Source of the DNA: Sanghuangporus weigelae
Taxonomy: Eukaryota > Basidiomycota > Agaricomycetes > Hymenochaetales > Hymenochaetaceae
Assembly: GCA_033182465.1 (NCBI GenBank)
Contig: CP137325.1
Span: forward strand, 1,860,001 to 1,924,000
Length of the DNA: 64,000 nucleotides
Direction of reading: 5' to 3'
Part shown: positions 4,017 to 63,159 of the stretch, piece after piece
Numbering within the stretch: the first letter of the stretch is position 1
Layout: each line of letters begins with the position of its first letter
Position numbers and translations under genes: made by a program
Notes under the pieces: model-generated
Database searches by the model: none
What the model saw: the letters and a program-made list of their open reading frames with translations, nothing else
What the model was told of the DNA's origin: nothing

Positions 4017-7000
4017 TTACCAGCCACCGGGAGGTCGAGGTGGTCCCGGATATCCACCCGGCGGTGGTCCGCTGTAGTAGCTCCCACCGGGAGGTGGCGC
4101 ATATGCATTATGATCTGGAAATCCTGGTGGTCCGCCGGAGTAGGGAGATGGACCTGGCATAGAAAAGCCACCACCAGGTGTGTCCGCATTAGGAAAAGAT
4201 GGAGTACCGTAAGAAGATGAGGATGGAGGAGGACCAGACGGTGGGATGTACGACGGCGTGTAGCCTGCGTGCGATGAATTGTCTGGATGACCAGAAGATC
4301 CGGAATATGGATGAAAAGACGATGGCGGCCCAGGGGGTGGTGCGTAGGACGATGAACCTGGGAAACTTGGTGGTACTTCGTGTTCACTGACTGAACTACT
4401 GATCCGCGTGCTCGAATGTCCAGAATAGTAGTCAGAAGCTTCCCCAGTTGAAGACACAGGCATTGGTTCCGATACGCTTCCATGCATGCCATGTGCGCCG
4501 CTATATCCATAGCTAGAACCACCTGAGTGAGAGCTAGCTGGGACACTGCCTTCCCTGAAACCAAAGCCGGGCTGGTTAGGTCGTGATGTATTGACCTGAT
4601 TGAAGAGCGACTGCGCTTGAGAGACGCCCGGGATCGTGTTCAGGTATCCACCGATGTGTTGTTGTGCGTTATGTGCAGCATTCCATGCTGCTCCCCCTTC
4701 GGCGCTTGATGAACCTCCTTCTCCCGACGCACGAATGTTACGGTGCTCGCGCACGTTTTCCTTTGTCAAACGTGACAAAACCGTGTGTTGTTTGTGCCCG
4801 AGACCCTGAACCCACTCATTCATCTTTTGCATCATCTCACGCTGGATCTGAGAATTGGGATTGTGGAAGTCCGGATGGAACCTGAGAATAGATTCGACAA
4901 GCGTTATGTCAAATCATCTTTTGACGAATAGATGAACATACAAGCATTCCAGGATTTCCTCTGTCGTTTGACGAACATTGGCAGAACTGTCACTCCATGC
5001 TTTTACGACGAGCCTTGTAGCATGTGCAACGACGACCATAGCGATCTTGCCAGCCGGCTCGTTCAGAATAAGATTCTTTAAAAATAAAAGTTTATCAATA
5101 CTGTAGTTTTCAGTACACCACCGACGCTACTCACAAAATGATCTTTACTGAGGAATGAATGCGTTGGATCAGACTGCGATGCTCCATCAATTAAGCGTGC
5201 TACCCTGTACTTTTCTCGGACTTACAGCTCCAGGATTGTTGAAAACCTTGACAGGACTTAATCAGTACTGGGTCGAAGTATCATGCTGGGTCTCAGACTC
5301 ACCTCATATTGATCATGACTATCGATAACCTCGCCAGAAGCTGACATGAGTCCGGTCGTGGCCGTTTTCATCAGTGGTTTGAGATAAGGCTCGAGTGTCG
5401 TAAATATGAACACAGATATGGAATCCATGAGTTTCTCGATGAGTGGACCGAGGCCAGGTATTTTTTCTGTATCAAGATGTCAGTTGGCGGTTTGCTGGAG
5501 CAATCAAGACGCTTAGCGACTGACCAATCGTCTTCTCGATTTTCTTGACAACTACAGGAAGTTTGTAATAAGCTCATGTTATTCTCCAGATCACTATTAG
5601 AGTTGATCATACTAGAGTCTCTAAAAGCCAAGATTTGCCATAGAACCGCATGCAGCTCCTGCGGACTCATATCTTCCGGACGCTTGCCACCAGCAGCAGG
5701 GCCGGCACGGATACGCTCGATGTCATCCATGCCTCGGCTCATTTCAGACCTTGACATGCCCGAACCGGATTCGTCACCGAAAGGAAGTTTACCGAGCAGG
5801 TCTTTAATGACAGTTACAGAGCTGCCACTGTCGCCTGGTCCGCCCGGGCCTGACCGTGAGCGTGCGCTAGCCTTTTCAAGCTCTTTGTTGAGATCGGTAA
5901 CGGAGGCCTGACTCTACGCAAACAAATAATGATCAGACTGTCATCGAAACGAAGAATGGAATGGAAGAGCGTACAATGTGATCTGTTGCTTCGCCTAGTA
6001 GACTGTGGATGAAATCGCTCCCTCCGAACGTGCCTTTCACGCCGCAGATGTTAGCGATGAGCTGTTGGGCATATTGATAATCTCACCTGTAATGAGAGGA
6101 GCTACGTATTTTCTATTCGGGGCTTGAATGCGCACACGATCGCCAACATGTACGAAGACGTGTGTGTGGCCCATTGACACGAGTGCAAGCTCGCAGAAGT
6201 TTGAATGAGCGGTGAAATCTTCGAGTGTATGCATCTGATAATAGCATTCATGGATTGATCGGATACTTAAAGGAACCGAGACGTTCTTACCGCTTGACCT
6301 AGCAGCCTGTAAGATTCATAAAGATCAGCCTTCTGATTGGTCGCGCGATACTGTCGTCCTATGTGGATACATTGTTCCAACGTCCTACGAACAAGTGCCT
6401 TCGACGTGTCCCAAGATCCGTTCTCTGATTGAAATAGGATAGGCTACTTTCCGATGCAACAAGACGAACAACGGACCGTTTGCAATGTAATTCTTCATTC
6501 CCGTACGCGGATCTATTTCAAGCTCGCGAGGATCGACAGGTCCGCGAAGCTTCGGGTGATATCTGCGCGCATCTTCGCCCTCGCCATAGCCTTTGGGATT
6601 ATCGATATGTTCAGTCTATGAAGATTTGTCAGTAAATCAGATCATTGGTACGAGACCTGGAACTCTGACGGGCAGGTACACGCCCAAACGATCTTCTGTG
6701 ACTTCAAACTCGTTGGTCGCATATCCGTGAGCAAGGAAGCCAAGTGCCATGCACAAATTGATAATCGTCTGCCAGGATCCAAGTTAGATACACTGTCTTG
6801 AGATCACACGATAGGAAAGTTTGAGAAACTGAGGCTTGGATGACGACACAATCAAGTGGCGCCTACATGATGCACATACGTACCTGCAGTGGAACTTTCT
6901 TCAGCGTTGCAATATCAACTGCTTGCGAGTAATCACGGAGCCAATTTCTGCAGCATGCGTTTATCTGTCTGTTCTCTGGTCAGGGAGTCTTACTGCTCAC

Positions 7001-7381
7001 CCGAAGTAAATTCTTTTGATATCCAAACCACCAAACTTGCTCCTACCAGCTAATGCGCCCAGAAACCCTGCGCCCGATTTCTTTGCTATATCTGCAAGCA
7101 CATCTTCCTGTCATGATCAGGCGTCAACTGGGATGCCATAAGACAAAGGGGCAACTATTGTTAACGAACGATGTCTCCGTGACGGAAGGCGCGACCCTCC
7201 ATGTATGCAAAGCTACAAATGCGTCTTAACACGCACTGCGGAACAAATCTCAGGTAAGACTGACGAACCTTGGAATGTTACCTGCACCGAAAGCATACAC
7301 GCCATTATTGGGCAAGCACACTGTCAAAACGAAAACTACGATGAATAAAATCATGAGGTTTGATGGCATTTTGGCTGCCAT
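4017..7381 (-). CDS. het-C: Het-C-like heterokaryon incompatibility protein
   Basis: This is a homologue of Neurospora crassa HET-C, a secreted or surface-associated glycine-rich protein involved in vegetative incompatibility. I read 16 exons on the minus strand: 7381-7269, 7212-7170, 7107-7001, 6947-6884, 6768-6664 (end uncertain), 6615-6477, 6424-6291, 6234-6087, 6033-5975, 5913-5613, 5551-5525, 5466-5303, 5246-5226, 5173-5135, 5075-4942 and 4881-4017. Together they give about 820 residues in one frame. A signal peptide covers about residues 1-31 (ILFIVVFVLTVCL core) and is followed by FGAGNIP. Conserved HET-C blocks include MEGRAFRHGDIEDVL, NWLRDYSQAVD, EHIDNPKGYGEGEDARRYHP, GMKNYIAN, LEDFTAHSNFCELAL and GLGPLIEKLMDSI. 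The last 250 residues are rich in Pro, Gly, Ser and Tyr rather than pure glycine repeats. Whether it acts in self/non-self recognition in this fungus is inference. Confidence 0.9.
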
Positions 7382-7834
7382 GTTATCTAAACGTGATAGA
7401 GAGATGCAATGATGATGGAAGTCAAGAAGGAAGAGAGAGTTCTGTGGCACTTGGTGTTATTATGCAGTGCAGTACTGATACTGATCGTGATGGGCGGTGC
7501 CGACCGGGATACAAATTGCCGATTATGGTAATAGGCCGTGTCAGATCCGCTGCGCCGAAGCCATCTTCTTCTCCACCACAGCTCCCAGCCCCTGTACCGC
7601 TGGTCCAGCCAGACCAGGATGACCAGGGCAAACCCGTGCTGCTTCAAAATGTATACTAATTACTAGTAGCTGTATATCAGAAGGTACATAGAAGATAGCT
7701 CTGCCATGGCATAACCTTCAAGCCTATAGATGGGATCTTTGATGCTGTATCGAGTCGAGGAGGCGAAAAGATCACGTGTTTCTCATAAAAGGAGGCTAAC
7801 TTGAACATGCACAGCAACTTTACATGTAAGTATC
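7382..7834. other. Intergenic spacer between divergent genes
   Basis: This 450-bp spacer separates the start of het-C (minus) from the start of the next plus-strand gene, so it probably holds both promoters. The small frames here are not conserved in character. Confidence 0.4.
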
Positions 7835-8824
7835 ATGTCTACAGTCACTCAAGCCCAGTCTGCCTCGCCAACTCGAAAGCTATTCCCTCCGAGGGCTGTC
7901 GTAAATATAATATCTTCAAAGCGGCATGCCAGCTCAAATGATCTAAAGGCAAAGGCAGCTCAACGTCCGGACGGGAACTCCACGAATGTACATAAACAAC
8001 GCCGTGTCGTTTCGACTCCCGCGAGCCGCGAAAACGACAAATCAGACAGTGATTCAGATGCAGAGCAACAGCAGCAGCAGGATGTACCGAATGGAGCGAA
8101 GGCGGATGGTACTCCTGCTCCACAGGGTCTACACAAGTTGACATTCCCGCACGTTGCCAAATTATTCGTCAAACTTCGTCGGATGCAGAAGAAGGCAAAG
8201 GCACATCATATCGATTCAAAGTCGGGTAACGACCCTATCACGCATCCTTCTTTGCTCAGTGACATAGGCGAGCCGGACATTACGAAGAAGCGGGCACGTC
8301 TTGAAATTCAGGAGGATTATGTTTGTGCTGATGGCATAGACGTTGCAAAATTGTTACGAGCAAGTCGCGCAGTCTTGCTTGAGCGTGCCAGCCCTCTTCA
8401 TGCAAACGTCCTGATTGACGAACTGTACGTATCATTTCTGCTATCTGTCCATCTGTTTTCTGGGGAACGCTCATCATGAAATGATTTTGAATGATTACCA
8501 GATGGACATGCTCAATTTGCGGTCCTAAGCATAGGAGCGATGGGAGCTTCAGAGTTCATGTGAGTATTCTTTGTCACACACGATGCCCCACTTCTCCTTC
8601 GCACTTCTCTACGCTGGCACCTGATGTTTCTCGTGTCTTCTATCTGCCTTTAGATCCGATACGCCGCAACCGCCGCCACTTCGTCCTCCAAGCGCGATCC
8701 TCAGCAGCCAGTCGCTCTTGATAAAATCAGTGGCGTACCTGGCTTGATGACTATCACCCAACGCGATACCGTCAGTTTGACTGTTGTCGAGCTCTTTGAA
8801 GAGGCGCAGATTGCTCAGGACTAG
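7835..8824 (+). CDS. Unrecognised nuclear-type hydrophilic protein, 272 residues
   Basis: Three exons, 7835-8424, 8502-8559 and 8654-8824, join in frame through GT-AG introns of 77 and 94 nt. The start at 7835 follows a run without stops. The N-terminal 95 residues are disordered, rich in Ser and charged residues, with an acidic stretch (DKSDSDSDAEQ) followed by five Gln. The middle is helical and basic (LTFPHVAKLFVKLRRMQKKAKAHH), followed by DVAKLLRASRAVLLERASPLHANVLIDEL. The short second exon contains CSICGPKH. The C-terminus (SGVPGLMTITQRDTVSLTVVELFEEAQIAQD) is acidic. I recognise no named domain. The composition suggests an intracellular, possibly nuclear, protein, which is a guess. The second intron could be placed differently. 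Confidence 0.55.
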
Positions 8825-9950
8825 CTTATGATACTTGTGAAATGAAATTCGTTCTCAGAACCGAACCGGTGGTTCTTGTCTGTCCTTCTTTTGCCTTTCT
8901 TTGATGTAATATTCACGGCTTGTCCCGCCCTACTATTTGCGTCCAGAAGAGGATTACATAGTGCATACAGACCTCTTCGAATTAATGTGTATTATATTGC
9001 AGTTGTCGTCTTTACTTCCTTTTCGCTTTGGACTCATTGATGCCGCATTGCACCCGTCGGCCATTCGCTTTCATTCTCGCCCTGTGCAACACACGTTGGA
9101 CCTACTTCTTGCACCTTGGTTCATTCAACTCGTTCATTTCATCGTGCGTTCTCGACTTCTCATTAATTATGGCTATTAATTTCTTGACTTGTCTGTACAC
9201 GTAATCTTCGGTCCTTAGGTCTCAATACATCGATGAGCAGTATGACTGAAATTGAGAGACGCGCTCTCGGAGAGGATATTCCAATCTTTTCTTTCCTCGC
9301 CCTCGATATTGAAGACAAGTCAGTTTGCTGTGCTCTGCTATGACGCACGTGGCACTGCTCGTAACCTCGTGGTGGAGCGCGTTCTTGCCATATCCGCCGG
9401 CCTATTCAATTCAATTCATTCACGGACGGGACGATCTCTCGCCAAGGTGGGATGCGACGGGTTCGTTTGACCAAGCAAGGATGGTGAGTACAACAATCTT
9501 ACGAGTGTTCTTATCCTAAGTTTCCTAACCTTCCTTCTTTGGGCTCCATACTGGACTGGAAAGGATTGACCACGATATGGTAATCACAAGACTGGGAAGA
9601 CCATCTGACCGGTAGTGGGCAGTGTTCCTGCTGGGCTGGAGCTGGAACTTAAGCAGAGGCTCTTCCGTATTCCGTACTTGATGACTCATGTGAGCCTCGC
9701 CGTATCAAGACAAGCACGAGCTTTCTGGTTCTTTCGCCGCTATTACCTTTACGCCACGGTCGATTGCAACTCCAATCGGTCTAGCTAGCCTTTATCGTTC
9801 TGTATCCCGAGACTGAGTGACCAGCAGCTTCCGCCAAGTTTTACTTGCTCCCGTTGTCTCTGATTTCTTCCGTGTCGATCGACGAGGAATTATTAGATCC
9901 ATCATCGGATACCGAAGCACTTATACTCGGCGCTGCACGTCGACTCGAGC
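8825..9950. other. Long intergenic region, nothing recognised
   Basis: This 1.1-kb stretch is moderately T-rich with many pyrimidine runs. The short frames show no domain. It may contain untranslated regions of both neighbours or an unrecognised small gene with introns. Confidence 0.35.
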
Positions 9951-12631: not shown

Positions 12632-13155
12632 TGAGGTGAGGACTGGTGAATGGCAGGTTCTGATATAGAAGACCTGCACCGACACGGTTGCTGTGCAACG
12701 CCAGATGCAGATGCAAAGGCATCAGTGATGACTCGGTTGTCAGGTTACAAGACAAGACTGTTGCGGGTTCGCGCCCATGGCCGACGTGAAGTTCACTCAG
12801 TTACAGTGTATCCGGAAAACCGTGTCCCGCGCGACTTCTTTCACTTCACAGCGGGCAAACGATGATTCATAACTAGATGACAAACGAAATTTGAAGTTTA
12901 ATAATGCATTTAGTCACATAATATATTTGATATTTGTTCATTGGCCAAATGCTAAACTATATTTGAAATAACAATAGGGATTTAGATTCCGATTTAGTAA
13001 ACAAAGAGATTATAAGTAAAGTCATGCGAGAAATGCATAATGAAATTTAAAATTTCATCCAGGAAAATATGCTTGTGTTTCTTCATGTGCAAAATTTTGA
13101 ATCATCTCAAGGAAAAAAATTGAAGTATCTATTGTAATCTCTTCAAAGAAGAAAT
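12632..13155. other. AT-rich spacer at the edge of the transposon island
   Basis: From about 12880 the sequence becomes strongly AT-rich, with no long frames and no repeats that I can name. It marks the boundary between host genes and the repeat island. Confidence 0.4.
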
Positions 13156-13171
13156 AAGATGCGTGATCAGT

Positions 13172-13230
13172 GCGCGCTCAGTGCATGATCAATGTCCACT
13201 CAGTGCCCACTCAGTGCCCGCTCAGTGTGC
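13172..13230. repeat. Left terminal array of 11-bp CTCAGTG units
   Basis: The array has about six 11-bp units of the form NNNN(C/A)TCA(G/A)TG. It is inverted relative to the array at 18620-18709, and the outermost 24 bases are identical between the two ends. Confidence 0.75.
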
Positions 13231-13595
13231 GATCAGCATGTATTATCATGAAGAAGTTCTCCAGTACCAGCATGAATCCAGCCAGTTGAGTGTGGCACTT
13301 GTGAAGGCTAACATGAGGTTTGAGTGAGTTTATTCTCTTTGTGTCCTCAACAGGTCAAGCTCACCATTTTGGTTAGAGCGGCATCGTATGGCTCAGGAAC
13401 AGTACATCATACACGAGTGACAAGCTCAAAATCTTCAGAAACAATGCCAACAATTACACAATCAGTACACACATCTAGATATTGCATGCAACTATGCTGC
13501 CAAGGATTTGTATCTACTAATACCCAGATCGAGCGATTGCAGAACGAATACTCCAACCTTCATGTGGAAAAGAAGACCTGGCAGGTGTGTAGCGG

Positions 13596-15391
13596 TGTAG
13601 CGCACTGGCCCCTCCTGTGCCAGTACACTCATACTATGGTTCCCTCCCACTGCAGATACCATATCCCAGTGCCACCTACACCTCAGAGTGTGAGGGTATA
13701 CTCCTACTGTACTCGAGACACTATTTGAGCATGTTTCCATCAATTCCAGCACATGTACTATACTGCAGTGCCCTCCTAAGGCCCAGATCGATATGCTGAT
13801 GGCTCTCTGACACTCAGACAGGTCTGCCAACAACTCCTACCTAGCACCAGGCACTATAGGACACATCCCTTGGTGACTACAGGCTGCCGATCTTACAATT
13901 TACTGTACATACAGCCTTGCGGCAACTCTAGATGCCTCCAAGTTGGCCCCCCATGGCGTCAATCAATGTGGCAGACACTCAGACATCCTCAGGTACCCTC
14001 ACCGATGCCTCCTACAGCTTACCAAGCAGTCCCCCATTGTCTAGGGAGCTATACATTGTCATATCTGCTTACATACCTCATTATAACGTATCTACTACCA
14101 CTCCGGCAGTCCCCTGCAGCACTGCTGCTCTGGCCACTCATATTAGTCACTAGGGATCACCCACACTCTGTATTGAGTGCTGCTGATGCATTGGACACCT
14201 CAGGGACACTGACTGATGCGTCCCTTGTCTTATATACACGATATTAGCCTCCAATTATTAGCTCCAATGTTTCCTGACTTCCCCCCAATGCAGCGGCCCC
14301 CATTAGACCATGTATGGAAGGTAGGCATGTGGTACATCGGCGTGCCAAGCTGTCAACTTGCGCTGCCAAGCCCAACTCTGATGGCGTCCATATTATTGCA
14401 GATACTCAATATTCCATGCTATTGGATGCCTCCCTCACGTTGTCACTTGCAGATTTCACCTGGGTGCTCCGGCAGCGGTCCTTGGCAACCCAGATAACTC
14501 AGGAGGTGTTGTCAGACAGTAGGACATGTTGGCGACAGCAGCAGAGTATATATAGAGCTTATATTAGGTTGGTAGATGATAGCTAAGAGAAGGTAGCAAA
14601 GCACAGACCAGACCAAGTGCCGGAGTTTAAGATATCCCTCACTCTGAGTCTCCCCTCATGTACTGAGCCCCCCCTTTGACTATATACTATCCTTGACATC
14701 TCCTCTTGTTTGATTCACCATTCTACTTACCTTTGCCGCCTCTGATACGGCTCTGCCGCTCTGACATCTGTCACATTTACACTATATTGGCGGATTCGTG
14801 TAGCGTCCCACTCAGTCTGGCACCCCTCTATCCAATGTCAGCAACTATTTGGTGACCCAGGCTTCCTATCAGACTCCTCTGTGGTGCCCTTTCCAGCCTT
14901 TCATTCTAGCTTACTCCATATATTCATCTGGTACGGTCCTTTCCTTCCATCTATTGCATTTATGCTATGTCAGCAGATTTATGCAACATCCCCCTCACTC
15001 CTGCACCCTCTATTTGACATCAGCAGCTATCCAGCAACACAGGCATCCTACCAGATGACCTATTGGCACCTTCTCCACCCACTTGCTCCATTTTAGCTCT
15101 TATATTCACCTTATACACTCTTTGCGACCCCATACCCGATCTTCTATCACGTCAGCAGCCTTCTGTGATCCCCCCCTTTTGAGCGGCGGCCCTATTAGCT
15201 TATCCCTTTCATACTTTAGCATCCCTAGACCCCTCCATCACATCTCCAATGGTTCCTGGCATCTGCTAGGTAGTGGGGATTTAGAGTCTGATAATGTCAG
15301 CATCTCGTTTTTGGAGGTTCCTTCATACATTCAGCACCTATAGTAGGACAGACATCTGTAGCACCTTCAGAGCCACACACCACCTACTACA
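13596..15391 (+). repeat. TGTAG...CTACA repeat, full-length copy A (LTR-like)
   Basis: The 1.8-kb unit begins TGTAGCGCACTGGCCCC and ends CACCTACTACA. Near-complete copies lie at 46796-48613 (+) and 31758-33518 (-). It contains a GAGTATATATAGAG TATA-like box near 14545 but no protein-coding character. TG...CA ends, short inverted termini and the TATA box fit a solo LTR. The sequence GCAG(G/T) flanks both ends if the element starts a few bases earlier, a weak hint of target duplication. It sits inside the Mlp1/TPR fragment. Confidence 0.65.
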
Positions 15392-15534
15392 GCAGTATAT
15401 TAACTTGTCTTGTGATTTATATTAACTTGAGATGTAGAATGTGCAGACTCAACTAATTGATAGGAATTCTGTCTCTGGAGTGGTCTCATATGGCGGACTT
15501 GATTGCTGACATACAGAAAATGCACAATAATGTT

Positions 15535-15609
15535 GACAAGGCAAATGGAAGTGATATGAGACAAGGCAAATGGAAGTGATATGAGACAAGGCAAATGGAA
15601 GTGATATGA
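15535..15609. repeat. 25-bp tandem repeat, three exact copies
   Basis: Three identical head-to-tail 25-bp units start at 15535, 15560 and 15585, each beginning GACAAGGCAAATGG. They lie in the decayed Mlp1/TPR fragment and look like a local replication-slippage expansion. Confidence 0.85.
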
Positions 15610-15881
15610 GACAACTAGGAAGATTTGAGTCCCAAATCTATGACCTGGCTGGCCAAGCGTAAGCATTTCTCTATATCACGTCTACTTTGGCATAGTAACA
15701 TTCAATTATGAATGCTCTAGTCAGGATCTTTAAACTCAGCTTTTCCTGCAAGTATGACACAGTCCGACAAATTAAACTGTAGAAGGATATTGAAGTTCAG
15801 AAACTGCAAACTAAGATTGATTGCTCCATAAGTTAGATGGTTCTGAAAATGAACTTGCTACGCTGAGATGAGCTCACACAC

Positions 15882-17404
15882 TGAAAGGATCCGTTCAAAA
15901 ACTCGCATCAGGATCGACGCGATCAGCAGATCCACACGATCAGCTTTCCAAACGCGACCAGTAACCAAGCCAGCTATCACGGGCCCAAGCGATCGAGCGG
16001 CCTAGGCAACAGTAACCCGTTACCACCTGAGCGCTAGAAGCACTGAAGCGGATACGTAATCCTGCTAACAGCTAACACCGCCGACCGCCTATTACCGCGG
16101 ACTACCACTCTAACACCGCCGACCAAGCAACCAGAGCGACCTCGATCAAAAGAAGCGATCAAACTTCTTAGAAGTCCAGAAGCACAACTACTAAAGCCTA
16201 AACGCTAAAAGGCTAAAGGCTAATAAGGTTTATGGAGACCTCACTGGCATTTCAGCACTGTCAAGTCTGTGCACGAGTTTACATGGTCCTTTATGAAGTA
16301 TACTACATAGTATGCACAGCAACAGTTGGTACACGTGACTGTCACATCGAAACCGAGCGACACCTTCAAGATACAATGCATTCCAACCCACCAAACCCAA
16401 TAGTACCCAAGAAACGAGAGGAACTCACAATTACAACTCGAACCCCTCGAACTGCGAACCCGATAACTTGGAGAATGATTGGATGGTATAGACCGGAGTT
16501 GCACACACCATGTCCAGCATCTACAATACAGGCAAACCTTTATTTACCGAGAGATGCAAACCTGGAGACCAAGTAGTTGCAACTCCTTATACAACGAAGG
16601 ATATGGCATTACATTCGAGACATACGATATGAAGGCAAAGCATGGCTAGTCACCAGAACCCAGCAGAACCTGCCAGCAGAGCTTATGCAGTTCATGATAT
16701 GCCTTGGACCATACTCTACACCGACCCGACACCTTAACACGGACGTGCGAGTTATGCTTACCCTCGCTGGACCTCGAGATGAATTCCGAAGAATCACATA
16801 CCGAGCAGCCTACATCGCTCCAAGAGCAAAGATGCCACTCAATAACGGCAATGACATCGTTATAGAGTACTGACAGTGGAGCATTCCACATCGGAGCACC
16901 ACCTCTATTGTCTCAGTCAGCAACTCCAAAGAATTCTGTCATAGTGGAGACGACCTTACAAAGATTGGAGCAAAGTGGAGCAAAGCGCAGCAGGATGACA
17001 AAGGAACAGATGTAATGGTGGAGAAAGGTGGAGAAAAGTGGAGTAAAGTGGAAACAGGATGAGTAAGAAATAGGACGGAAAATTGGAATATCTGGGAGCA
17101 TAAATAGATGTAGGATTAGGCCCTCATTTCCCCATCTTTCGATCCTCTTAACACACTGGTGTAAAGCTTGCCCTACAGCGAGCTATTACTGTGTGCTTTG
17201 TACTATCACGCCTCTTGGAAATCCCAATCTGCTTTACTATCACCTCGTATCTGAAAGCATCCATAACTCGGACAGCGACTAAGAAGGCTAGTAAGGGACC
17301 GCGTGGTACAGCCAGACGAGGGTAGATAAGATCACCTCTGCACAACACACCGCTGCTTAGGCAAAAGGATCGAACCGGTGTAACCCCGGGCCTACTCCCT
17401 AACA
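15882..17404 (+). mobile_element. Solo LTR (1523 bp) with 5-bp target duplication
   Basis: The element starts TGAAAGGATCC and ends ACTCCCTAACA. CACAC stands immediately before it (15877-15881) and immediately after it (17405-17409). A TATA-like TAAATAG lies near 17100. A second copy at 42480-43937 lacks the last 26 bp. The interior holds a 213-codon reading frame (separate entry). No internal retrotransposon region of this family was recognised in the window. Confidence 0.8.
16232..16873 (+). pseudogene. ORF inside the solo LTR, copy 1 (one nonsense codon)
   Basis: The frame runs from ATG 16232 to a stop at 16873 (213 codons), interrupted only by TAG at 16574-16576, where the second copy has CAA (Gln). 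The predicted protein starts METSLAFQHCQVCARVYMV and includes WLVTRTQQNLPAELMQFMI and RAAYIAPRAKMPL. I recognise no domain. The basic, tryptophan- and tyrosine-containing composition looks protein-like. The second copy keeps this region open but has its own stop elsewhere. Coding inside an LTR is unusual but known in some retroelements; whether this one is expressed is unknown. Confidence 0.55.
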
Positions 17405-18619
17405 CACACCAATCAAATGTCCCGCGAGAACGAGATTTGAGAGCAGATGCAGTGTACCAAGGTGGGTCTATTACAATGTCAAGAGCATCAGTGAACTTAC
17501 TCACTGTATAAAGGCTGCTAAAGAGAAATATTCTCATGAAATTGTCACTCATGCCGAGTCTATCAAGATCGAGAACACTTTTAAGAAGGAGCTCAGTGAG
17601 GCATGGACTTTTTTACATGAGAAGACAGTTTAAGCTGAGACTGCTCAGGCAAACTTGACCGCATCGGAAGCTAGTTGGAACCAGCAGCAATCTTAACGAG
17701 GAGATTGTAGATCTTACAGCTCGGTAAGCATAGCTGTTCTGTTTACTTCCTCATATATCACTAAGCCAGAATATAGTCACAAAGACCTTGCAGCACAAAA
17801 TAGCCTGCTTCACCAACACCTGAAGTCTCAGTTCACAGGCCTCTCATATACATCAAGTTGCGAAATCAAACATGATCGTGCTAGAGTCGGGTGATGGTAA
17901 TAATGTGGATGGCCATGTGATGGAGCTGCATTCTATAATAGCCTATCTGCGCAAGAAGAAGGAAATTGTTGCCCTTCAACTGGAGTTCTCCAAGTAGGAG
18001 AATGCATGACAAAAGGCACAGATTAACCATCTCAGCCAGGCTCTTGAGGAAACAGGGGCAGTGTTGTCAAATGTTCATCTGCACCATTCTACTTATTGTT
18101 ACAATACATTCTAACTCTTTCGAAAGGAGCGTGAAGAAGTGGCAAAAGCTATCAGTAATTCTACTGAGCATGTTGAACTGTTGAAAAGGATAAACTAACT
18201 CAACATTCTCCATGAAAGTGATGCCATGCTTTGTGCAGAGAGTGAAGTGCAAGTGTATAAAGCACGTCAGCTTGAGACGATGCTCAATCCCCTCCAATCA
18301 GAACTGAATCCACTTAAACAAGAAGCGAAGATGCTCCATGCTGAGATTGATGCCAAGAATGCTTAGATTTAATAGCTTAAAGACAAGAGTCGTCAATGGA
18401 AGGAATGGAATGCTCAGCTTCTTACAAAGGCAAGTTAACTGATCTGTATTTAAAGCATTTATACTTGAAAATTTATTGACAACAACTAGTACAATTGTAT
18501 TGACCCAAATGATGTCCAAGCTCTCAATGATGAGATCAAAGACTTACAGATTGATCTCTGTAAGGCCAAGGAAGAGAAGGCAGCTTACACTGCCCAGAAG
18601 GATGCACAGACTAAAATAT

Positions 18620-18709
18620 GCACTGAGTACGCACTGAGCAGGCACTGAGCATGCACTGAGTGTGCACTGAGCAGGCACTAAGTGCACATTGATCATGCAC
18701 TGAGCGCGC
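18620..18709. repeat. Right terminal array of 11-bp CACTGAG units
   Basis: Eight 11-bp units of the form CACTGAGNNNG (two degenerate) are the inverted counterpart of the array at 13172-13230. Confidence 0.8.
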
Positions 18710-18719
18710 TGTAGACTAT

Positions 18720-20312
18720 CAGACCCTCTTAAGCAGCGGCGAAGGCGACGGCGTTCGACCACAGAGAGGCGTTGGCGGTGTCAAAGATCGGAGAGGTAAG
18801 AAGGGATCCAACTCGTGGCTAGACCTCCTGGACAGCTTGGTGCCGTGGGGGACAATTTGGCCCGGAAGCACTGCTGCCGATCGGGATGCGCGCTCAGTCG
18901 TGGGGAGAGCTCAATCGTAAGGGCTATGGTATGATCCGCGTATAAAGAGGACGCCGCCGATAATGTACGAGACAAAGCCGCCGACGAGTCAAGATGTCGG
19001 CGTCGCGAATAAGCAATAGAGCGACAGCGCTGTCGAGTCCTGCGAGCGGCGGCGATTACTAGTAGAGCGACGGTACCGCCGATTACCAGGAGAGCGACGG
19101 TGTTGCCGATTACCAGGAGAGCGACGGTGTCGCCGATTACCAGGAGAGCGACGGTGTCGCCGATTACCAGGAGAGCGACGGTGTCGTCAATTGTCAAGAG
19201 GGCGATGGCGCTGCCGATTCCCAGGACGGGGGATAGCTCTGCCGATCACTTGCGCAGTGGCGAGTGAGCACGTGCCCCTGTTATTCCCTTAAACGGGGGC
19301 GGCGTCTTGTGTCGGCACACGATTTTCGGCGGAGGCGATAGAGAGCAAAAGGGCTAATAGAGACGAGAGGAGTGCACTGAGATCTATTCTGAACTACTGC
19401 TTCTGAACACTACATACATGAGGTCTATATATACTGGGGAATGCTGGGGAAGAGCGTCACAGAGGCGGCGACAGTGACGGCGCGTCACAGGCGCGCAATC
19501 GGTGCGGACCCGAAGATCGGGGCGCGCCGCGAAGCTGCCAAGACACGGGCGCGCGCTGATCGGGCTGGCGGTGATTGGCGCGGCGCATCATCATCGGGCG
19601 CGCTCGGATCGCTAAGTGGTCGCACCACACGAATATGAAACGTCAGGGGAGGCAATAATACTAAAAGGGGAATACGCGAGTGGCCGCCGCGTCCGACAAT
19701 CGGACTCGGCGCACGAAGCAGCATAGTATGAACATGAAACGTGGTACCTGGGACCTTGTAAAACCACTACCCGACGTCGGATAAGCCAATCAACAGGAGC
19801 CGACGAATATTCCATCGGCTATACGGTTCGATATCCTTCCGCCGCCATAGCCGATACATCCGCTGCAACGTTCCAGGCGCCCGCGTATCAGAAAGTGCGG
19901 CTGGCCAAGCGTACTCGGTTTGGGAAGTCTTCGAAGGACGGGGGGCGGCGGACGTATTTGTTGAGCCGCGAATCAAAGAGCGGCGGTTTGGAGGGTCTAA
20001 GGAGCGGCGGAGGTGTAGCGGTCGGCGCACGATGGTATACTGTACAGAGTACTGAGGGGCCTGTACCGACGTACCGGTACAGGCAAGTGCGGCGCACTAC
20101 ACCGTTCCGGCCGGAGGTATTCTGACTATCCACGGTTCCCACAGAGTAGGCCGGAGTCTCGGTCTATCTCAGGGGAGTCTTCTGGATCACCCTTCTTTGT
20201 TTGGTTTCCCCGATTCGTTCTCGCTCGCTCCCTATAGGATCGAACGCCCTAGCCTGCTAGGATCGCACCTACAGACCTAGTCCGATCATCCACCCACCCT
20301 ATTGATCATACA
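18720..20312. other. CpG-rich tract of unknown origin inside the AT-shifted island
   Basis: Base composition changes abruptly to GC- and CpG-rich at the right end of the captured-gene element. The tract contains the 27-bp tandem array at 19065-19226 and short frames on both strands without recognisable domains. The last 150 bp (from about 20160) match sequence at 30480-30620, which suggests that the 3' end of another repeat family lies here. It has escaped the CpG depletion seen around it, so it may be a recent insertion. Confidence 0.45.
19065..19226. repeat. 27-bp tandem repeat, about six copies
   Basis: Units start at 19065, 19092, 19119, 19146, 19173 and 19200, each beginning GAGCGACGG or a close variant and containing GCCGATTACCAGGA. 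On the minus strand they would encode repeated ALLVIGDTV, but no gene context supports translation. Degenerate units extend to the left. Confidence 0.85.
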
Positions 20313-21218
20313 CCGGCAGCAGCCCTTGGCAACCCAGATGACTCAGGAGATGTTGTCAGACAGTAGGACATGTCGGCGACAGCAGTAGAGTATATATAGA
20401 GACCATCATCTTAGAGGAAGAGAGCATGTACCAGACCGAGCACCAGAGTTTGAGATATCTCTCACTCTGAGTCTCCCCTCATATACTGAGCTCCCCCCTT
20501 GACTATATACTATCTTTGACATCTCCTCTTGCTTGACTCACCATTCTACTTGCCTTCGCCACCTCTGATATGCCTCAGCTGCTCTGACATTCAGTGAGTG
20601 AGTAGAAGCTCGGGAATTAACCCTGAGCTTCCTCCACCCCTCTTGCACCTTGTCGGCACCCCTCTGTTTGACATCGGCGGCCCTTCAGTGACACAGGCCT
20701 CCTATCAGACTCCTCTGCAGCACCCTTTCCAGCCTTTCACCCCAGCTTAGTCCATATACTCATCTTATAGAGTCCTTTTCTTTCACCTATTGCATTTACG
20801 CTACTTCGGCAGACTCGTGTGGCCTCCCCCTCATTCCTGCAGCCCTCTATTTGACATTGGCGGCTATCCAGCGACACAGGCATCATACCAGACGACCCAG
20901 TGGTGCCTTCTCCACCCACTTGCTCCAGTTCAGCCCTTATATTCATCTTATACGGTCCTGCCGACCCTGTGTCTGAGTTTTCCACCACATCGCCAGCCTC
21001 CTGTGATCCCCCCTTTTGAGCGGCGGCCCTGTTAGCTTATCCCTTTCATACTTCGGCATCCCTACACCCCTCCATCACGTCTCTGACAGTTCCTGGCATC
21101 CGCTGGGTAGTGGGGATTTAGAGTCTGATAGCGTCGGCATCCCGTTTTTGGAGGTTTCTTCATACCTTAGCAGGACGGACATTGGTAGTGCCTTCAGAGA
21201 CACACACCACCCACTACA
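20313..21218 (+). repeat. TGTAG-family repeat, 5'-truncated copy B
   Basis: It starts inside the unit (GGCAGCAGCCCTTGG) and runs through the TATA-like GAGTATATATAGAG to the end CACCCACTACA at 21218. It corresponds to the 3' half of the full copies and joins copia sequence directly at its right edge. Confidence 0.7.
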
Positions 21219-22175
21219 GTGCTGAATATGGCCAAGGAGGAGTAGAGGGGGCCTCGGAGGTATCACCATCGAACTCTTTGAGGGAGTTTCGTTCTATGGA
21301 GTCGAAACAGGACGTATGTTCGTTAGGTTGTACCTTTGTAGAGCTCGTTGTATTTTAAGAGGGACTGAGATTTTGACAGAATTTTGAGACTCATCATAGT
21401 ACACAGAGAGACCAAGAATGAAAGCGACAGAGCGTGGGTCCTTTTCCTTGAATTTGAAGAGTTTTCCGAGTTCAGTCTTGAAACGAACCACTTCAGTATT
21501 GCGTGGAGTTTTAGGAGTAGAGATGCAAGTTCTGTTCACGTCATCGACGTGGGTTGCAAGTATAGTCTCTCCATTTTTGTCCTTTCTGATGAAGACGGAG
21601 GGCACAGATACACAGCAATGAAAGCTAATACCCTTTAGTGTATTACCAAAATGAAGATACCACGCTCGAGCTCCTTGCTTGAGTCCATATAGAGCCTTCT
21701 TGAGGTGACAAACGGGATAAGAGAATGTGGGGACAGTAAAGCCGGTGGGATATTCAACATAAATATTGTCTTCCTTTAGAGGACTGTGCAGGTAAGTGGA
21801 AGTGATGTCCATGGCAACAAGTGAAGCATGTTGGTTTGCACTGATCACCAGGACAATTTTTGCTGTACGAAAGTCTCCCACTGCCGCAAAGGTCTCTCCA
21901 AATTCAAGACCGGGTACCTGGGAGTCACCTCTTGTGACCCAATGAGCATGGAATTCATATGAACCATTGTCCTGGGGCTTGGTCGCAAACACCCACATAC
22001 TCTTAATGATATGCGTACCTTTTGGTCTCTTCACCACATTCCAACATTCCATTTCTGTCAATTTCTTCACCTCATACTTCATAGCTTTCTTCCACTCGTC
22101 TCCTTCAGCAGAACCAAAAGCCTGGTGGCACTTCAAGGTATTATGGGTTCGGTAGCAAGGTTTGCCATTTTGCAT
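21219..22175 (-). pseudogene. Copia 1 reverse transcriptase (RVT_2), truncated
   Basis: The 293-codon open stretch includes EWKKAMKYEVKKLTEMECW, the MDITSTYLHSPL segment (usually MDVxxAFLnG), KALYGLKQGARAWY and the catalytic-loop relic ATHVDDV (usually YVDD). After NIRPVSTP the frame continues weakly to 21219, where a TGTAG-family repeat begins. RNase H is absent. The altered metal-binding motif and truncation indicate that it is dead. Confidence 0.8.
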
Positions 22176-23333
22176 ACTTCGTGTTTACTCGCTATCTGGT
22201 TGGATTGTCGAGGAACTGGGATTGGACGACCAGAGATTTGAGTTGGTTCCGCGGGATGCGGAGACGGAGGTAAGTAGACTCTATTCCGTGCAATGGAATT
22301 AAGCTCATCGAAGATCACATCACATGAGTACTTGACTTTCCAAGTCAATGGGTCAATCAGTCTGTATGCTGCGTCTTTGTTGTAACCCATCAAATAGTAA
22401 CGAACAGCTTTGGTGGAGAGCTTTGAACGCAATTCAGGTGCCAACTGCACGTATGCCCAACAACCAAATATCCTTACATGGCTGACATCGGGCTTTCTTC
22501 CGTATAGTACCTCGTGAGGGGTCTTCCCATTAACTGATGAGTGTGCGGTTAAGTTGTGTATATATGCAAATGAAGCATATGCTTCTGCCCAGTATCCTTG
22601 AGGTAACCCGGCCCCCTCCAGCATGGAACGGATGGCATCTGAACCTGTCTGGTTCATGCGTTCGATATGACCATTCATCTTGTGACGGTACGGAATGGTG
22701 AGGTGATGTTCAATTCCGTTCTGTGAGTTGAATTCCTTCATTTCATTGTTGACGAATTCCAGCCCATTGTCGGTGTGGAGTGCCTTGATTCAAGTTTCAA
22801 ACTGAGTGGAAAAAAATCACACAAAGTTGTTTCCAGAAGGTGAGGATCACATTCCCTTCTTTATTACTGATAGGGTACACCCATAGGTAATTGGAATACT
22901 TATCAAGGAATTTCAGCGATATTTCAGCACCTGCAAGAGAACAATGACCCATAAACTCGAGATCGGAGTGAATGACATCTCCAGGTGAGGTTGCTCTTAT
23001 TAGTTTTACTGGAGTATGCAAAGCTGACATTTTCCCCAGAATGCAGGTTTCACACTTCAATGCTGGTTCAGTCAATGAGATTAGGAGTCCTGACACCTCT
23101 TGATTCTTTGCGATTTCCTTCACCCTATCGATACCCAGATGTGCTAGCCGGCAATGCCATACTTGAACAGATTGTATGGTATCCTTTTTGTTATTCATGA
23201 GCTTCGCTGACTCTTTTAACACATGCATCTCCAGAATCCAATGATTCTTCTTTAGTTTCGCACAGCCGAAAGGAACACGTGCATTCAACAAGTATAAATG
23301 CGTCACATTGGAGTACGTTGAAACTCCTGTGGG
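22133..23333 (-). pseudogene. Copia 1 GAG-pre-integrase and integrase, frameshifted
   Basis: Reading leftward, the pre-integrase WHCRLAHLGIDRVKEIAK with CETCILGK is followed by the integrase start HSDLEFMGHCS and DKYSNYLWVYP. A frameshift near 22790 leads to a second frame with NGIEHHLTIPYRHKMNGHIERMN (catalytic Glu region), YWAEAYASFAYIHN and GRKPDVSHVRIFGC. This is the normal copia order. The frameshift disrupts the protein. Confidence 0.8.
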
Positions 23334-34518: not shown

Positions 34519-37500
34519 TAGTTGTCAAGCTCCAGATTCTATCTGTGAACCTTGCATTGCTGGCAAGCAGCACAGGTCCAATGTCTCCAAACTTGCATCT
34601 CACAGAGCTTCTGGTCTCCTCCAACTGGTCCACTCTGACGTTCATGGTCCATTGCCTGTCCAGTCTAGACATGGCTTCAAGTATTGGTTCACCTTCATTG
34701 ATGATTACAGCTACTACTGGGCTGTTCTTCCATTGAAGAAGAAGAGTGATGCATTTGCTGCCTTTAAGCAATTTAAGGCCTATGCAGAGAACCAGTTAGG
34801 AGTGAAGATCAAGGCCACTCGTGATGATAAAGGTGGAGAGTATATGTCTAAGGAATGGGACCAGTTCTGTATCACTGCAGGCATCCACAGGCAGCACACT
34901 ATCAGAGATGAACCTCATCAGAATGGTGTTGCAGAGCGTGCCAACAGGACACTTGCAGAGGGCATCACTACTATGCTTAATGAAGCACATCTGCCCTCTA
35001 ACTTCTGGTGGGATGCAGTGGCAGCATTTGTGCATGTGCACAACCGCTCTCCCACCTCTGCAGTATTTGCCAGTACACTCTATGAGCTCTGGTTCCAGTC
35101 AAAGCCAGATGTCTCTCACTTGCGTGTATTTGGGTGCACCTCCTATGTGCTTGTGAAGAAAGACCAACACAAGCAGCTACAGTCCCACACACAGAAATGT
35201 GTGTTCTTAGGCTACCCCTCAAATTATAAAGGCTGGCTGTTCTGGAATCCTCTTACTAGGAAGGAAGTTATCAGTGACTCTGCTCAGTTTGATGAGAGAG
35301 TCTTCCCTGGTACATCCAGAAACCCAGTTCACTTGAGGGTGAATCTGCCTGTACAGACAGAAGACCTGCCAGAACAGGAGGAAGTAGAGAATGCCATTGA
35401 TGTTCTGCCAGCTCCTCCTCCACCACCTGCTTCTGCACATCCAGCAGATCCTCCTATGCCTACACCTACACCTTCACCTCCTCCACATAGTCCTTCATAT
35501 CACTCTCCTTCACCAGCTGCTGATCCACCAAAGCGTGAACATACTATTTCACCACTGCCATCTGAGCAGGCCTTAAAGAAACAAAGGCCTGCTTCTCTCT
35601 GGTGGCCAGATCCAATGTGGAGACCAGTTAGACATCATACTACTGGCTGGTGGGATATGGACTATGTTGGAAAGCGCCTTCCTAGACGTGTGCTAGGCTC
35701 TCCTATTCTACAACAGCACTTTAACTTCAACTCAGCAGAGCCAACTGCATCTGACACTGTTCCTGATACTGACTCTGCAACTCAGCCAGACATTGTAGAG
35801 CAGCCAGAGCAAGATGCTGAGATGGACAGTGATTCACCTGATGAACTGAACATCATGTCAGAGGAGGAGTTGCAAGCTGAAGCACTGATGTTTACTGGCC
35901 TGATGGATTTTGGTGCTAATGTAGGACTGGAGGACATCTATCTGTCTTATGAGGATGCTCTGGAATATGCATTTCAGACATCTCATTGTGCTGAGCATGT
36001 GTTCTCTGCACAAGGAGTGCAACACATCAGTTCTGAATCTTATCAGTGGAAAGACATCAAAGGGCGCTCTGATGCAGACCTCTGGGAGAAGGCAGCCATG
36101 GAGGAGTTTGTCAGTCTGATTGAGAATGGCACATTTGAGCCAGTCAGACTGTCTCCTGGCAGAAAGCCTATTGGTTGCAGATGGGTGTTCAAGCTCAAGC
36201 GCAAGGCAGATGGCTCTGTATATAGGTACAAGGCAAGGCTAGTAGCCAAGGGCTTCTCACAGCAGCCAGGACTTGAGTTCTCTCAAGTGTTTGCTCCTAC
36301 AGCTAAGTGGGCTGCACTTAGAGCCATCCTGGCATTGGCTGCATTTGAGGATCTTGAGCTGTACAGTGTTGACATCTCTACTGCTTTCCTCAATGGTGAG
36401 ATGGAGCATGATGTCTATACTGTGTTTCTGCCCCTTACGCTCAGTGACCCAGTAACGCTCAGTTTTGCAATCTCTCACTCAATTCTCATCCAAAATTCAT
36501 GAAACTTTGTATGTAGATAGTGCACCATTATGACTATGTTATCACAAAATCTGGGCCAAAAGTACTTAGTGCATGCTGAGTTATAGCGCACGCATTCTGA
36601 ACAGATACTTGATTTGAGTGATTTGAGTGAATCAAAATTGTTCTCACGGTATGTGCATCATCTATAAATGTTTCCTGTGAATCAATTAAGATAAAACTCG
36701 GTATAAACGTGGTTGAAGGTATCTGAAAACTATGTGCAAAGTTTCAGAAGCTGATGTTATGTATAAGGAATACTAGAGCATGTCGGAAATTGCTCTGATT
36801 TTTATCATGTAATTATACAGAAAATGAGGTGCAGCAGCCTCTTGAATTTTTTTACACAATTTTCAGGAAAGCAATCTCCAAACTGTTTGCACATTCCAAA
36901 ACATAAGTACAATATGGAGTGATTCTTGAAATTTCATGCTGAGAGACTCAAGGAAAAAATTAATATTACAATAGAGAGTGTAAGGCCAAAAAACATCGGA
37001 ATCGGCCATTCTTCAGTGTTATTTCATCTCCTCTTTCCATCAGATGTCCAGGTGAAAAGATAGTACAACCTCCCTACCTAATCTAGCATGATAATTGCCT
37101 TCTCTATAAGTGACTCTATGAAGGCCTGCACACTGTCAGAAAGAGAGACTGAAGACACACTGTAGATTCCATATCATAGTATGATGCAAGTCTCATAAAG
37201 CAATGTAGATTCAGAACTGACACAGCATCTCCTTATCCATGAGCCAGAGAGCATGTCCATCCTTTGAGTGAAGAGCTCATTGCTATGCACTATTCTTATT
37301 CTTCACTGTCTCACTTAAGTCAGACAAATTTGTGGGTGTCTTATCATGAAATTGTCCATTAATGCAGTGTCTGAGTATTCATGACCATCCATAGATGTAT
37401 TCCAGATGTTAAAATGGTGCTTTTGCGACCATCTTTGAGTTGCTTTCCAGCAAAGATGAGGGGTGAATGGGTGAAAGGAGATGACGTGAGAGCCGTCAAG

Positions 37501-37806
37501 ACGTGTCAAAGCTCCTTTCCCACGACTGAGCGTTTCTGGGTCAGACGCGTGAGCAGTCAATTTTTGAGACTCCCGTCTCATAAATTCAATAAAATATTCT
37601 ACTTAGGCTTTTTTGTTTGAATAAAGTGCAAAATATATTCTAAAGATGTGCACCTATTCTAATGACAACGTTTTGTGGCGAAAAGTATGAACGGAAAATT
37701 TGTGGAAGGAAAAAAAGCTTAGACTGAGCGTTTCGGGCAGAAACACAGTATGATCCAGCCTGAAGGATTTGAGGACTACTTTAGCCCTGGATTTGTTCTC
37801 AAGCTG
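34519..37806 (+). pseudogene. Copia 2 integrase and reverse transcriptase N-terminal part (inverted block)
   Basis: The frame reads CEPCIAGKQHRSNVSK (HHCC zinc-site end), VHSDVHGPLP and FIDDYSYYWAVLPL with the first catalytic Asp residues. It continues GIHRQHTIRDEPHQNGVAER (DDE Glu region), KPDVSHLRVFGCTSYV, a Pro-rich linker, and the RT start WEKAAMEEFVSLIENGTF to VDISTAFLNGEMEHDVY at 36417. It resumes after the mariner-like insertion as QPEGFEDYFSPGFVLKL (37751-37806). About 616 codons are open. Everything around it in this element runs on the other strand. Confidence 0.8.
36420..37748. mobile_element. TA-flanked (Tc1/mariner-type) non-autonomous element, 1329 bp
   Basis: The left end is CTGTGTTTCTGCCC and the right end read inward is the same 14 bases. 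ACGCTCAGT follows three bases further in on both sides. TA precedes and follows it (36418-36419, 37749-37750). Removing the element and one TA restores the copia reading frame through DVYMIQPEGF. The ACGCTCAGT motif recurs in subterminal positions. The interior has no transposase-like frame. Confidence 0.85.
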
Positions 37807-63000: not shown

Positions 63001-63159
63001 AACGACAAGCTTCGTCAGGAGGTGACGATTCTCGAGGCTCGTCAGCGTAGACAACGGCACCATCATCAACAGCATCAACAACAACAACAGCAGCAGCAGC
63101 AGCAGCAGCAACCGCAGCAGAATCAACAAGTCGCATGGGTCGGCAACGTCCAAGCCTAA
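60094..63159 (+). CDS. wc-1: White-collar-1 blue-light photoreceptor homologue
   Basis: Exons 60094-60629 and 60723-63159 join through a 93-nt intron to give 990 residues. The N-terminus has Gln and His/Pro runs (SQSQQQQQQQ; repeated HP near residue 155). The LOV domain covers about residues 305-420 with GRNCRFLQ; C361 would form the flavin adduct under blue light. A second PAS domain (DFIHVLSFKGHFLYVSPAITHVLGYLPEDLIG) starts near residue 545 and is extended by a Ser/Gly/Thr insert. A third (LFLVAGMGVRDLLGWGTAEIIGRS) lies near 740-840. The C-terminus has 12 consecutive Gln and no GATA zinc finger, as known for basidiomycete WC-1 proteins, which rely on WC-2 for DNA contact. It should act in the nucleus as a light-responsive transcription regulator. 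ATG 60094 is the first in frame after the TATA-like sequence. Confidence 0.95.

What the first reader, a model, noticed from the sequence alone, without database searches (positions are those of the whole stretch)
13172..18709. Inverted 11-bp-repeat arrays enclose a captured nuclear-pore (Mlp1/TPR) gene fragment
Seen: the ends share 24 identical inverted bases and continue as arrays of CTCAGTG-type 11-bp units; the space between reads almost completely as Mlp1/TPR coiled coil with nonsense changes. Known: non-autonomous transposons such as Pack-type elements carry host gene fragments between inverted ends. Inference: a fungal transposon family with array-type termini captured this gene. The recursive terminal structure and the target gene make it unusual.
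Basis: partly seen in the sequence, partly recalled or inferred. Interest (0 to 1): 0.75.

Follow-up and report, generated by a model that had tools for sequence, protein, structure and literature searches.

The report
Fungal CACTA transposon carrying TPR fragment
In a fungal genome, a mobile DNA element that probably cannot move by itself picked up a piece of the host's nuclear-pore gene TPR/MLP1 and spread it to at least four places; this resembles the gene-capturing "Pack" transposons of plants and is useful mainly as a well-dissected fungal example.

Summary
The core of the finding holds, with corrections. The CTCAGTG arrays are real, but they are the inner parts of ~390-bp terminal inverted repeats, not the ends. 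The left end is at 12847 (CACAGCGGGCAAAC); the window copy lacks its outer right end after 18709. Two relatives (C4, 4336 bp; C11, 4864 bp) keep both ends, with 3-bp target duplications. About 3.3 kb of the interior is two later insertions, not TPR; the TPR parts are 13250-13599, 15391-15881 and 17405-18615.

The parent TPR/MLP1 gene lies on contig C9 and has no arrays. All four element copies (C8, C4, C6, C11) share the same right capture junction and an internal ~690-bp deletion and keep introns: one DNA-level capture, then amplification. Two elements of 18.6 and 19.9 kb with the same terminal 13 bp, 3-bp duplications, alignable inverted repeats and 11-bp arrays contain CACTA-type Transposase_21. 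A C13 copy joins this family's ends to their interior.

Best reading: a non-autonomous CACTA/EnSpm element, Pack-CACTA-like, moved in trans. Plant Pack-CACTA and fungal hAT transduplication are known. My searches showed no fungal Pack-CACTA.

The parts
12847..12860 (+). left terminus of the element, CACAGCGGGCAAAC
   Evidence: exact match to the terminal motif of the family
12847..13236 (+). left terminal inverted repeat, about 17 bases shorter near the end than in C4/C11; inner part is the array
   Evidence: 92-94% to the inverted repeats of the C4 and C11 copies over 12865-13227
13165..13236 (+). left subterminal array of 11-bp units, (A/C)TCAGTG pointing inward
13250..13599 (+). captured TPR piece 1 (parent positions 5875-6233 align to 13250-13596)
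   Evidence: 81% to the C9 gene
13600..15390 (.). later insertion, absent from the C4 and C11 copies; part repeated at 20313-21219 (78%)
15391..15881 (+). captured TPR piece 2, ending just past the shared deletion of parent 6634-7325
   Evidence: 72% over parent 6241-6633 with gaps; deletion joint read
15882..17404 (.). later insertion, 1523 bp, TG..CA ends, CACAC on both sides: probably a solo LTR
   Evidence: 94-98% matches in L024, L025, L027 (part) and L030; L024 also matches window 42480-43944 at 93%; flanks read
17405..18615 (+). captured TPR piece 3 (parent positions 7343-8556), introns kept
   Evidence: 85% to the C9 gene over 1216 columns; intron alignments
18618..18709 (-). right subterminal array (inner part of the right inverted repeat); outer part not found
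18707..20104 (.). unrelated dispersed repeat abutting the broken right end
   Evidence: 33 other near-full-length copies among 73 listed matches, at 92-98%; 40 of 262 candidates were scored

Best explanation
The locus is a decayed copy of a non-autonomous CACTA/EnSpm-type DNA transposon that carries a fragment of the host TPR/MLP1 gene. SHOWN: (1) the family has CACAG..CTGTG ends, ~390-bp inverted repeats whose inner part is an inward-pointing 11-bp array, and 3-bp target duplications. (2) One ~2.7-kb internal piece of the TPR gene, introns included, was captured once and lies between the arrays in four copies that share a derived internal deletion. (3) Two elements of 18.6 and 19.9 kb with related ends contain a Transposase_21 (CACTA tnp2-type) domain. 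(4) The window copy was then interrupted by two insertions, lost its outer right end and gathered C-to-T changes, in excess at CpG. INFERRED: an element-encoded protein binds the 11-bp units, and the Transposase_21 proteins of the large elements cut at the CACAG ends and move the small ones in trans. Capture happened by repair of a gap in the element that copied from the TPR gene (template switching). The TPR piece has no function as protein.
For: Ends and target duplications: of 13 two-ended copies held, 11 have an exact 3-bp duplication (one more has 4 bp, one none); 0 of 20000 re-pairings reached 11, the maximum being 6. Inverted repeats: C4 397 bp at 96.5%, C11 388 bp at 95.6%.

Single capture: the right junction is the same in 4 of 4 copies, and the left junction in 3 of 3 copies that keep it. 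Loss of parent ~6634-7325 is seen in 4 of 4. The tree of 7 rows separates the four copies from C9/C7/C1 at 100/100.

Parent gene: Pfam TPR hits; stop-free frames run across both capture points.

Transposase: Transposase_21 matched 3 places; two lie inside C1:195805-215722 and C6:2027145-2045731, whose ends share the terminal 13 bp, with TTT and ATT duplications. The C1 inverted repeat aligns end to end with the C4 element's beyond the shared 13 bp (z 5.8, 500 block shuffles). Arrays lie in the same register: TCAGYG at 338 and 349 from the end in 4 of 4 large-element ends and the C4 left end, 349 in the C4 right and both C11 ends.

Link: C13:472463 has this family's inverted repeat and array (88%) and an interior matching the large elements at 67-72%.

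Decay: C-to-T at CpG vs other C/G sites: window 58/148 vs 59/444, C6 52/148 vs 45/446, C11 52/148 vs 29/446, C4 21/148 vs 31/446. The TPR duplicates without arrays on C7 (5/148 vs 19/447) and C1 (13/148 vs 27/445) show no significant excess.
Against: The window copy lacks its right end, so its own target duplication cannot be checked. The C6 copy is rearranged and has no complete pair of ends; the C4 and C11 copies also carry insertions. The termini are CACAG, not CACTA. blastn found no match between the inverted repeats of the two groups; only the global alignment does. Cross-mobilisation is inferred from ends only. The C13 link has only a left end, and no Transposase_21 match lies there. The capture mechanism rests on junction shape, not on an observed event. 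The CpG comparison assumes that the C9 gene kept the ancestral bases; the array-less C10 fragment also shows an excess (13/41 vs 19/153, p 0.008), so the excess is not confined to element copies.
Confidence: 0.88

Rival explanations
1. Capture by fusion of neighbouring insertions (the model proposed for plant Pack-CACTA): two copies inserted on either side of the TPR segment and then moved as one. This is a rival to the capture step only.
For: It is the favoured model for plant Pack-TYPE elements (PMC8903248, section 9 read). Many short copies with compatible ends exist in this genome.
Against: It predicts remnants of inner inverted repeats between the array and the TPR piece. Both junctions abut the innermost array units, in 4 of 4 right and 3 of 3 left junctions. 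Stop-free frames of the parent run across both points. Later deletion of remnants cannot be excluded.
Confidence: 0.25
2. The TPR piece was moved by a Helitron or by reverse transcription, and the arrays are incidental.
For: Helitrons capture genes in Pleurotus (PMC4289320, seen in search listings only). Retroelements are common in the window.
Against: Introns are kept, against reverse transcription. Long terminal inverted repeats and 3-bp duplications are present, which Helitrons lack (recalled).
Confidence: 0.02
3. The element belongs to another DNA-transposon superfamily with 3-bp target duplications (e.g. PIF/Harbinger), and the shared 13-bp end with the Transposase_21 elements is convergence.
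For: Between the TPR-type and large-element inverted repeats, blastn found no match; only a global alignment shows it.
Against: Inverted repeats align end to end (z 5.8), arrays lie in the same register, and the C13 copy joins both types. CAC..GTG ends with 3-bp duplications are given as EnSpm traits in fungi (PMC12730594, passages). Plavaka and KDZ matches lie outside the elements. PIF/Harbinger transposases were not searched for.
Confidence: 0.07
4. An assembly error or chance inverted repeat beside a TPR pseudogene.
For: The window copy taken alone is truncated and nested.
Against: Array-bounded TPR pieces recur on C4, C6 and C11; C4 and C11 have different flanks and target duplications.
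Confidence: 0.01

Closest known systems
Pack-CACTA elements (plants; PMC8903248, passages and section 9 read; the original paper by Catoni et al. was not held)
   Same: Non-autonomous, CACTA-like ends, host gene fragment between inverted repeats, several copies, autonomous relatives in the genome.
   Different: Fungal host; ~390-bp inverted repeats that include the subterminal array; junctions directly at the array; CACAG ends.
EnSpm/CACTA transposons of fungi (PMC12730594, passages read)
   Same: CAC..GTG ends, 3-bp target duplications.
   Different: Those described there carry a TET/JBP gene; this one carries a TPR fragment and shows no transposase.
hAT transduplication of histone H3 in Pyrenophora and Mycosphaerellaceae (PMC3538342 passages; PMC6710886 abstract and first part of the Discussion)
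   Same: A fungal DNA transposon amplified a housekeeping gene or gene piece; in Mycosphaerellaceae the copies decayed by RIP while the original stayed intact.
   Different: hAT, not CACTA; a transcript was captured in the Mycosphaerellaceae case, while here introns are kept; RIP there, CpG-biased decay here; far fewer copies here.
En/Spm and the 20.5-kb soybean Tgmt* CACTA element (PMC2613891, passages read)
   Same: Short conserved ends, 3-bp duplication, subterminal repeat motifs, ~20-kb size of the autonomous element.
   Different: Plant; different motif; motifs there are asymmetric and in both directions.

Membership tests
CACTA/EnSpm superfamily | CAC..GTG termini | tested here: met
   CACAG..CTGTG in both two-ended TPR copies and in short and long relatives; not the classical CACTA
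CACTA/EnSpm superfamily | 3-bp target-site duplication | tested here: met
   11 of 13 two-ended copies held
CACTA/EnSpm superfamily | subterminal repeat arrays | tested here: met
   11-bp units, inward, in TPR and large elements
CACTA/EnSpm superfamily | tnp2-type transposase in the autonomous partner | tested here: met
   PF02992 inside C1 and C6 elements, E 3e-11 and 9e-11; that these are the partners is inferred from ends
CACTA/EnSpm superfamily | catalytic DDE and C2C/H motifs | not tested
CACTA/EnSpm superfamily | protein binding to the subterminal repeats | not testable with these tools
   needs a binding assay
Pack-TYPE (Pack-CACTA) | host gene fragment between the inverted repeats, parent gene elsewhere | tested here: met
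   C9 parent; piece 5875-8556 bounded by arrays
Pack-TYPE (Pack-CACTA) | no transposase of its own | tested here: met
   no PF02992 match in the C4, C11, C8 or C6:18-28 kb copies; the longest C4 frame has no Pfam hit; C11 frames were not scanned
Pack-TYPE (Pack-CACTA) | several dispersed copies with target duplications | tested here: met
   C4 AAT and C11 TTC; C8 and C6 are incomplete
hAT (as in fungal H3 transduplication) | 8-bp (rarely 5-7) target duplication | tested here: not met
   3 bp
Helitron | no inverted repeats, no target duplication (recalled) | tested here: not met
   both present
KDZ / Plavaka | PF18758 / PF18759 transposase in the family | tested here: not met
   3 and 8 matches, none inside the two large elements or the TPR copies

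The most novel reading that the evidence does not exclude
The TPR gene is a recurrent target: pieces of it were captured or duplicated more than once. Besides the CACTA capture there is a ~235-bp piece around the FTEVYAEYVRMQ stretch, dispersed at 11 places that start at nearly the same base (10 of them also end at the same base), and long duplicates on C7 and C1 (perhaps one event). The bold reading is that mobile elements gain by carrying TPR pieces, for example by making RNA that dampens nuclear-basket TPR and with it silencing of the elements.
Probability: 0.06. Interest if true: 0.8.

Novelty: new member of a known kind. Interest (0 to 1): 0.45.

Why it matters
It gives a traceable case in a fungus: parent gene, capture junctions, derived copies, short relatives, a joining copy and probable autonomous drivers, all in one genome. 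That lets the two capture models for Pack-type elements be compared outside plants. It also warns annotators that TPR-like fragments in such genomes can be transposon cargo. Why pieces of TPR recur at so many other places is unexplained.

Tried and rejected
Plavaka and KDZ as the driver: matches lie elsewhere. Retrocopy: introns kept. Arrays as internal repeats of TPR: none in L022. Lost right end further on in the window: not found. Other host genes in related copies: Pfam found nothing in two C13 frames, and part of the C13 interior proved to be element sequence. The 1055-bp C11 copy was read but not explained. Reading one frame of a Plavaka locus (L067) with stops as X gave no hit. A paper search for TPR/Mlp1 capture gave nothing relevant in its ten listed titles of 30.
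Full report
OBSERVATION. The window is C8:1860001-1924000 of a 33.87-Mb, 13-contig genome. The genome has Plavaka and KDZ transposase matches, which suggests, but does not show, a basidiomycete; the species is not known. The inverted 24-nt match (13172-13195 / 18686-18709) and the 11-bp arrays are real. They recur at related loci, so they are not chance.

TRUE EXTENT. A search with 12855-13240 listed 72 matches, a lower bound because 40 of 70 candidates were scored. Two copies that carry the TPR piece have both ends: C4:164140-168475 (inverted repeats 397 bp, 96.5%) and C11:244474-249337 (388 bp, 95.6%). They begin CACAGCRGGCAAAC. The window has that motif at 12847-12860 but no right counterpart. 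Its right array ends at ~18709 against a dispersed 1.4-kb repeat with 33 other near-full-length copies listed. Nine short two-ended relatives are held, seven of them 393-402 bp; most short relatives match only the outer part of the inverted repeat. Of 13 two-ended copies checked (11 of this family, 2 large), 11 have an exact 3-bp duplication, one has 4 bp (CCGA) and one none.

INTERIOR. Against the C4 copy, 13600-15390 and 15882-17404 are extra. The second has TG..CA ends and CACAC on both sides, so it is probably a solo LTR. The rest is TPR. The C4 and C11 copies have insertions of their own.

PARENT GENE. The parent is on C9 (L022 plus L064). An N-terminal 1.6-kb query found C9 over its whole length and elsewhere only pieces (14 other rows). 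Its exon stretches hit Pfam Nucleoprot-TPR and TPR. L022, which holds almost all of the gene, has no array. The element copies hold parent positions 5875-8556, less insertions and deletions. The right junction is the same in window, C4, C6 and C11, and the left one in window, C4 and C11. All four lack ~6634-7325. Introns are present. Hence one DNA-level capture, one later deletion, then amplification. The tree (7 rows; the C10 fragment was left out) puts the four copies on one side at 100/100. The C7 (parent 5268-9242) and C1 (5594-8775) copies are 91-92% to the parent, have other boundaries and no arrays. They stand apart from the element copies but group with each other at 91/92, so they may share one origin.

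DRIVER. Two large elements, C1:195805-215722 (19,918 bp) and C6:2027145-2045731 (18,587 bp), start with CACAGCGGGCAAA, have inverted repeats of 425 bp at 97.4% and 515 bp at 95.7%, and are flanked by TTT and ATT duplications. Pfam Transposase_21 matched three places in the genome; two lie inside these elements, without stops inside the match. blastn found no match between their inverted repeats and the C4 one, but a global alignment beyond the first 13 bases scores -54 against a shuffle mean of -137 and maximum of -88 (z 5.8). Their arrays contain TTCAGTGGGCG-type 11-mers that point the same way and start in the same register: TCAGYG at 338 and 349 in 4 of 4 large ends and the C4 left end, 349 in the C4 right and both C11 ends, 360 in C13; in the window 321 and 332, in line with its shortened end. 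The C13:472463 copy has the TPR family's inverted repeat and array (88%) and an interior that matches C1, C6 and C5 at 67-72%. This ties the TPR element to the Transposase_21 lineage.

HOW IT WORKS. Shown: structure, target duplications, single capture, amplification, decay. Inferred: transposase supplied in trans. In En/Spm the transposase and a second protein that recognises the subterminal repeats are both required and may be provided in trans (PMC2613891, passages). For capture, the junctions touch the innermost array units with no inner inverted-repeat remnant, and stop-free frames of the parent run across both points. This favours gap repair with template switching (discussed for animal Pack-TIRs in PMC8277862, passages) over fusion of neighbouring insertions (PMC8903248). 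By eye, GTATG is shared at the right junction between parent and array, and in the parent it looks like the start of an intron; this was not tested against chance.

DECAY. C-to-T change at CpG is in excess in all four element copies (Fisher p: window 8e-11, C4 0.01, C6 2e-11, C11 4e-16) and not in C7 (p 0.81) or C1 (p 0.26) (counts; parent taken as ancestral). Against a clean split, the array-less C10 fragment also shows an excess (13/41 vs 19/153, p 0.008). The pattern fits methylation-linked decay of the transposon copies. DNA methylase domain matches exist (4), but methylation itself was not measured. The window copy showed 11 stop signs over eight aligned stretches of five parent frames; some stretches overlap and some frames run into introns, so the number is approximate. 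The C7 and C1 duplicates have stops too.

NOVELTY. Pack-CACTA is known from plants, transduplication by hAT elements from ascomycetes, and CAC..GTG EnSpm elements from fungi (papers above). Searches (17 of 17 listed; 20 of 134; 4 of 4; 10 of 30; 15 of 556; 12 of 13; 12 of 16) showed no fungal Pack-CACTA and no TPR capture in the listed titles and abstract starts. The library is open-access only. I therefore call it a new member of a known kind, in a host group where I found none described.

Noticed in passing
C9 TPR gene, parent positions ~4821-5059 (L022, minus strand): This ~235-bp piece is dispersed: 11 other loci at 89-90%, starting at nearly the same base, 10 of 11 ending at the same base. 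Some repeat seems to have captured another part of the same gene; its carrier is unknown (one, C5:935170, lies between family-type end motifs).
   Followed up: partly
L025 (C7:2580442-2584899) and L027 (C1:978629-982683): Long TPR duplicates (parent 5268-9242 and 5594-8775) with introns, no arrays, no significant CpG excess; mechanism unknown.
   Followed up: partly
L028, L030 and C10:1800307-1800999: Further diverged TPR fragments (69-85%).
   Followed up: no
C1:195805-215722 and C6:2027145-2045731: Two large Transposase_21 elements with very similar inverted repeats, possibly recently active.
   Followed up: partly
C13:472463 onward (L037): Left-end copy joining the TPR family's inverted repeat to the large elements' interior; right end not seen.
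   Followed up: partly
window 19053-19226: 27-bp minisatellite, 6.4 copies, inside the 18707-20104 dispersed repeat.
   Followed up: no
window 42480-43944: Second copy of the probable LTR seen at 15882-17404 (via L024).
   Followed up: no
window 21294-22741, 34652-38990 and 41199-41741: Copia-type retroelement pieces (RVT_2, integrase, gag) on both strands and a Ty3-type gag piece.
   Followed up: no
window 60802-63159: Long frame with several PAS domains; a white-collar-like light sensor is my recollection, not a result.
   Followed up: no
L028 4104-6953: 950-codon frame with ~135-bp tandem repeats.
   Followed up: no
L059 (C11:1403351-1403752): Short relative without a 3-bp duplication whose flanks continue the palindrome.
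   Followed up: no
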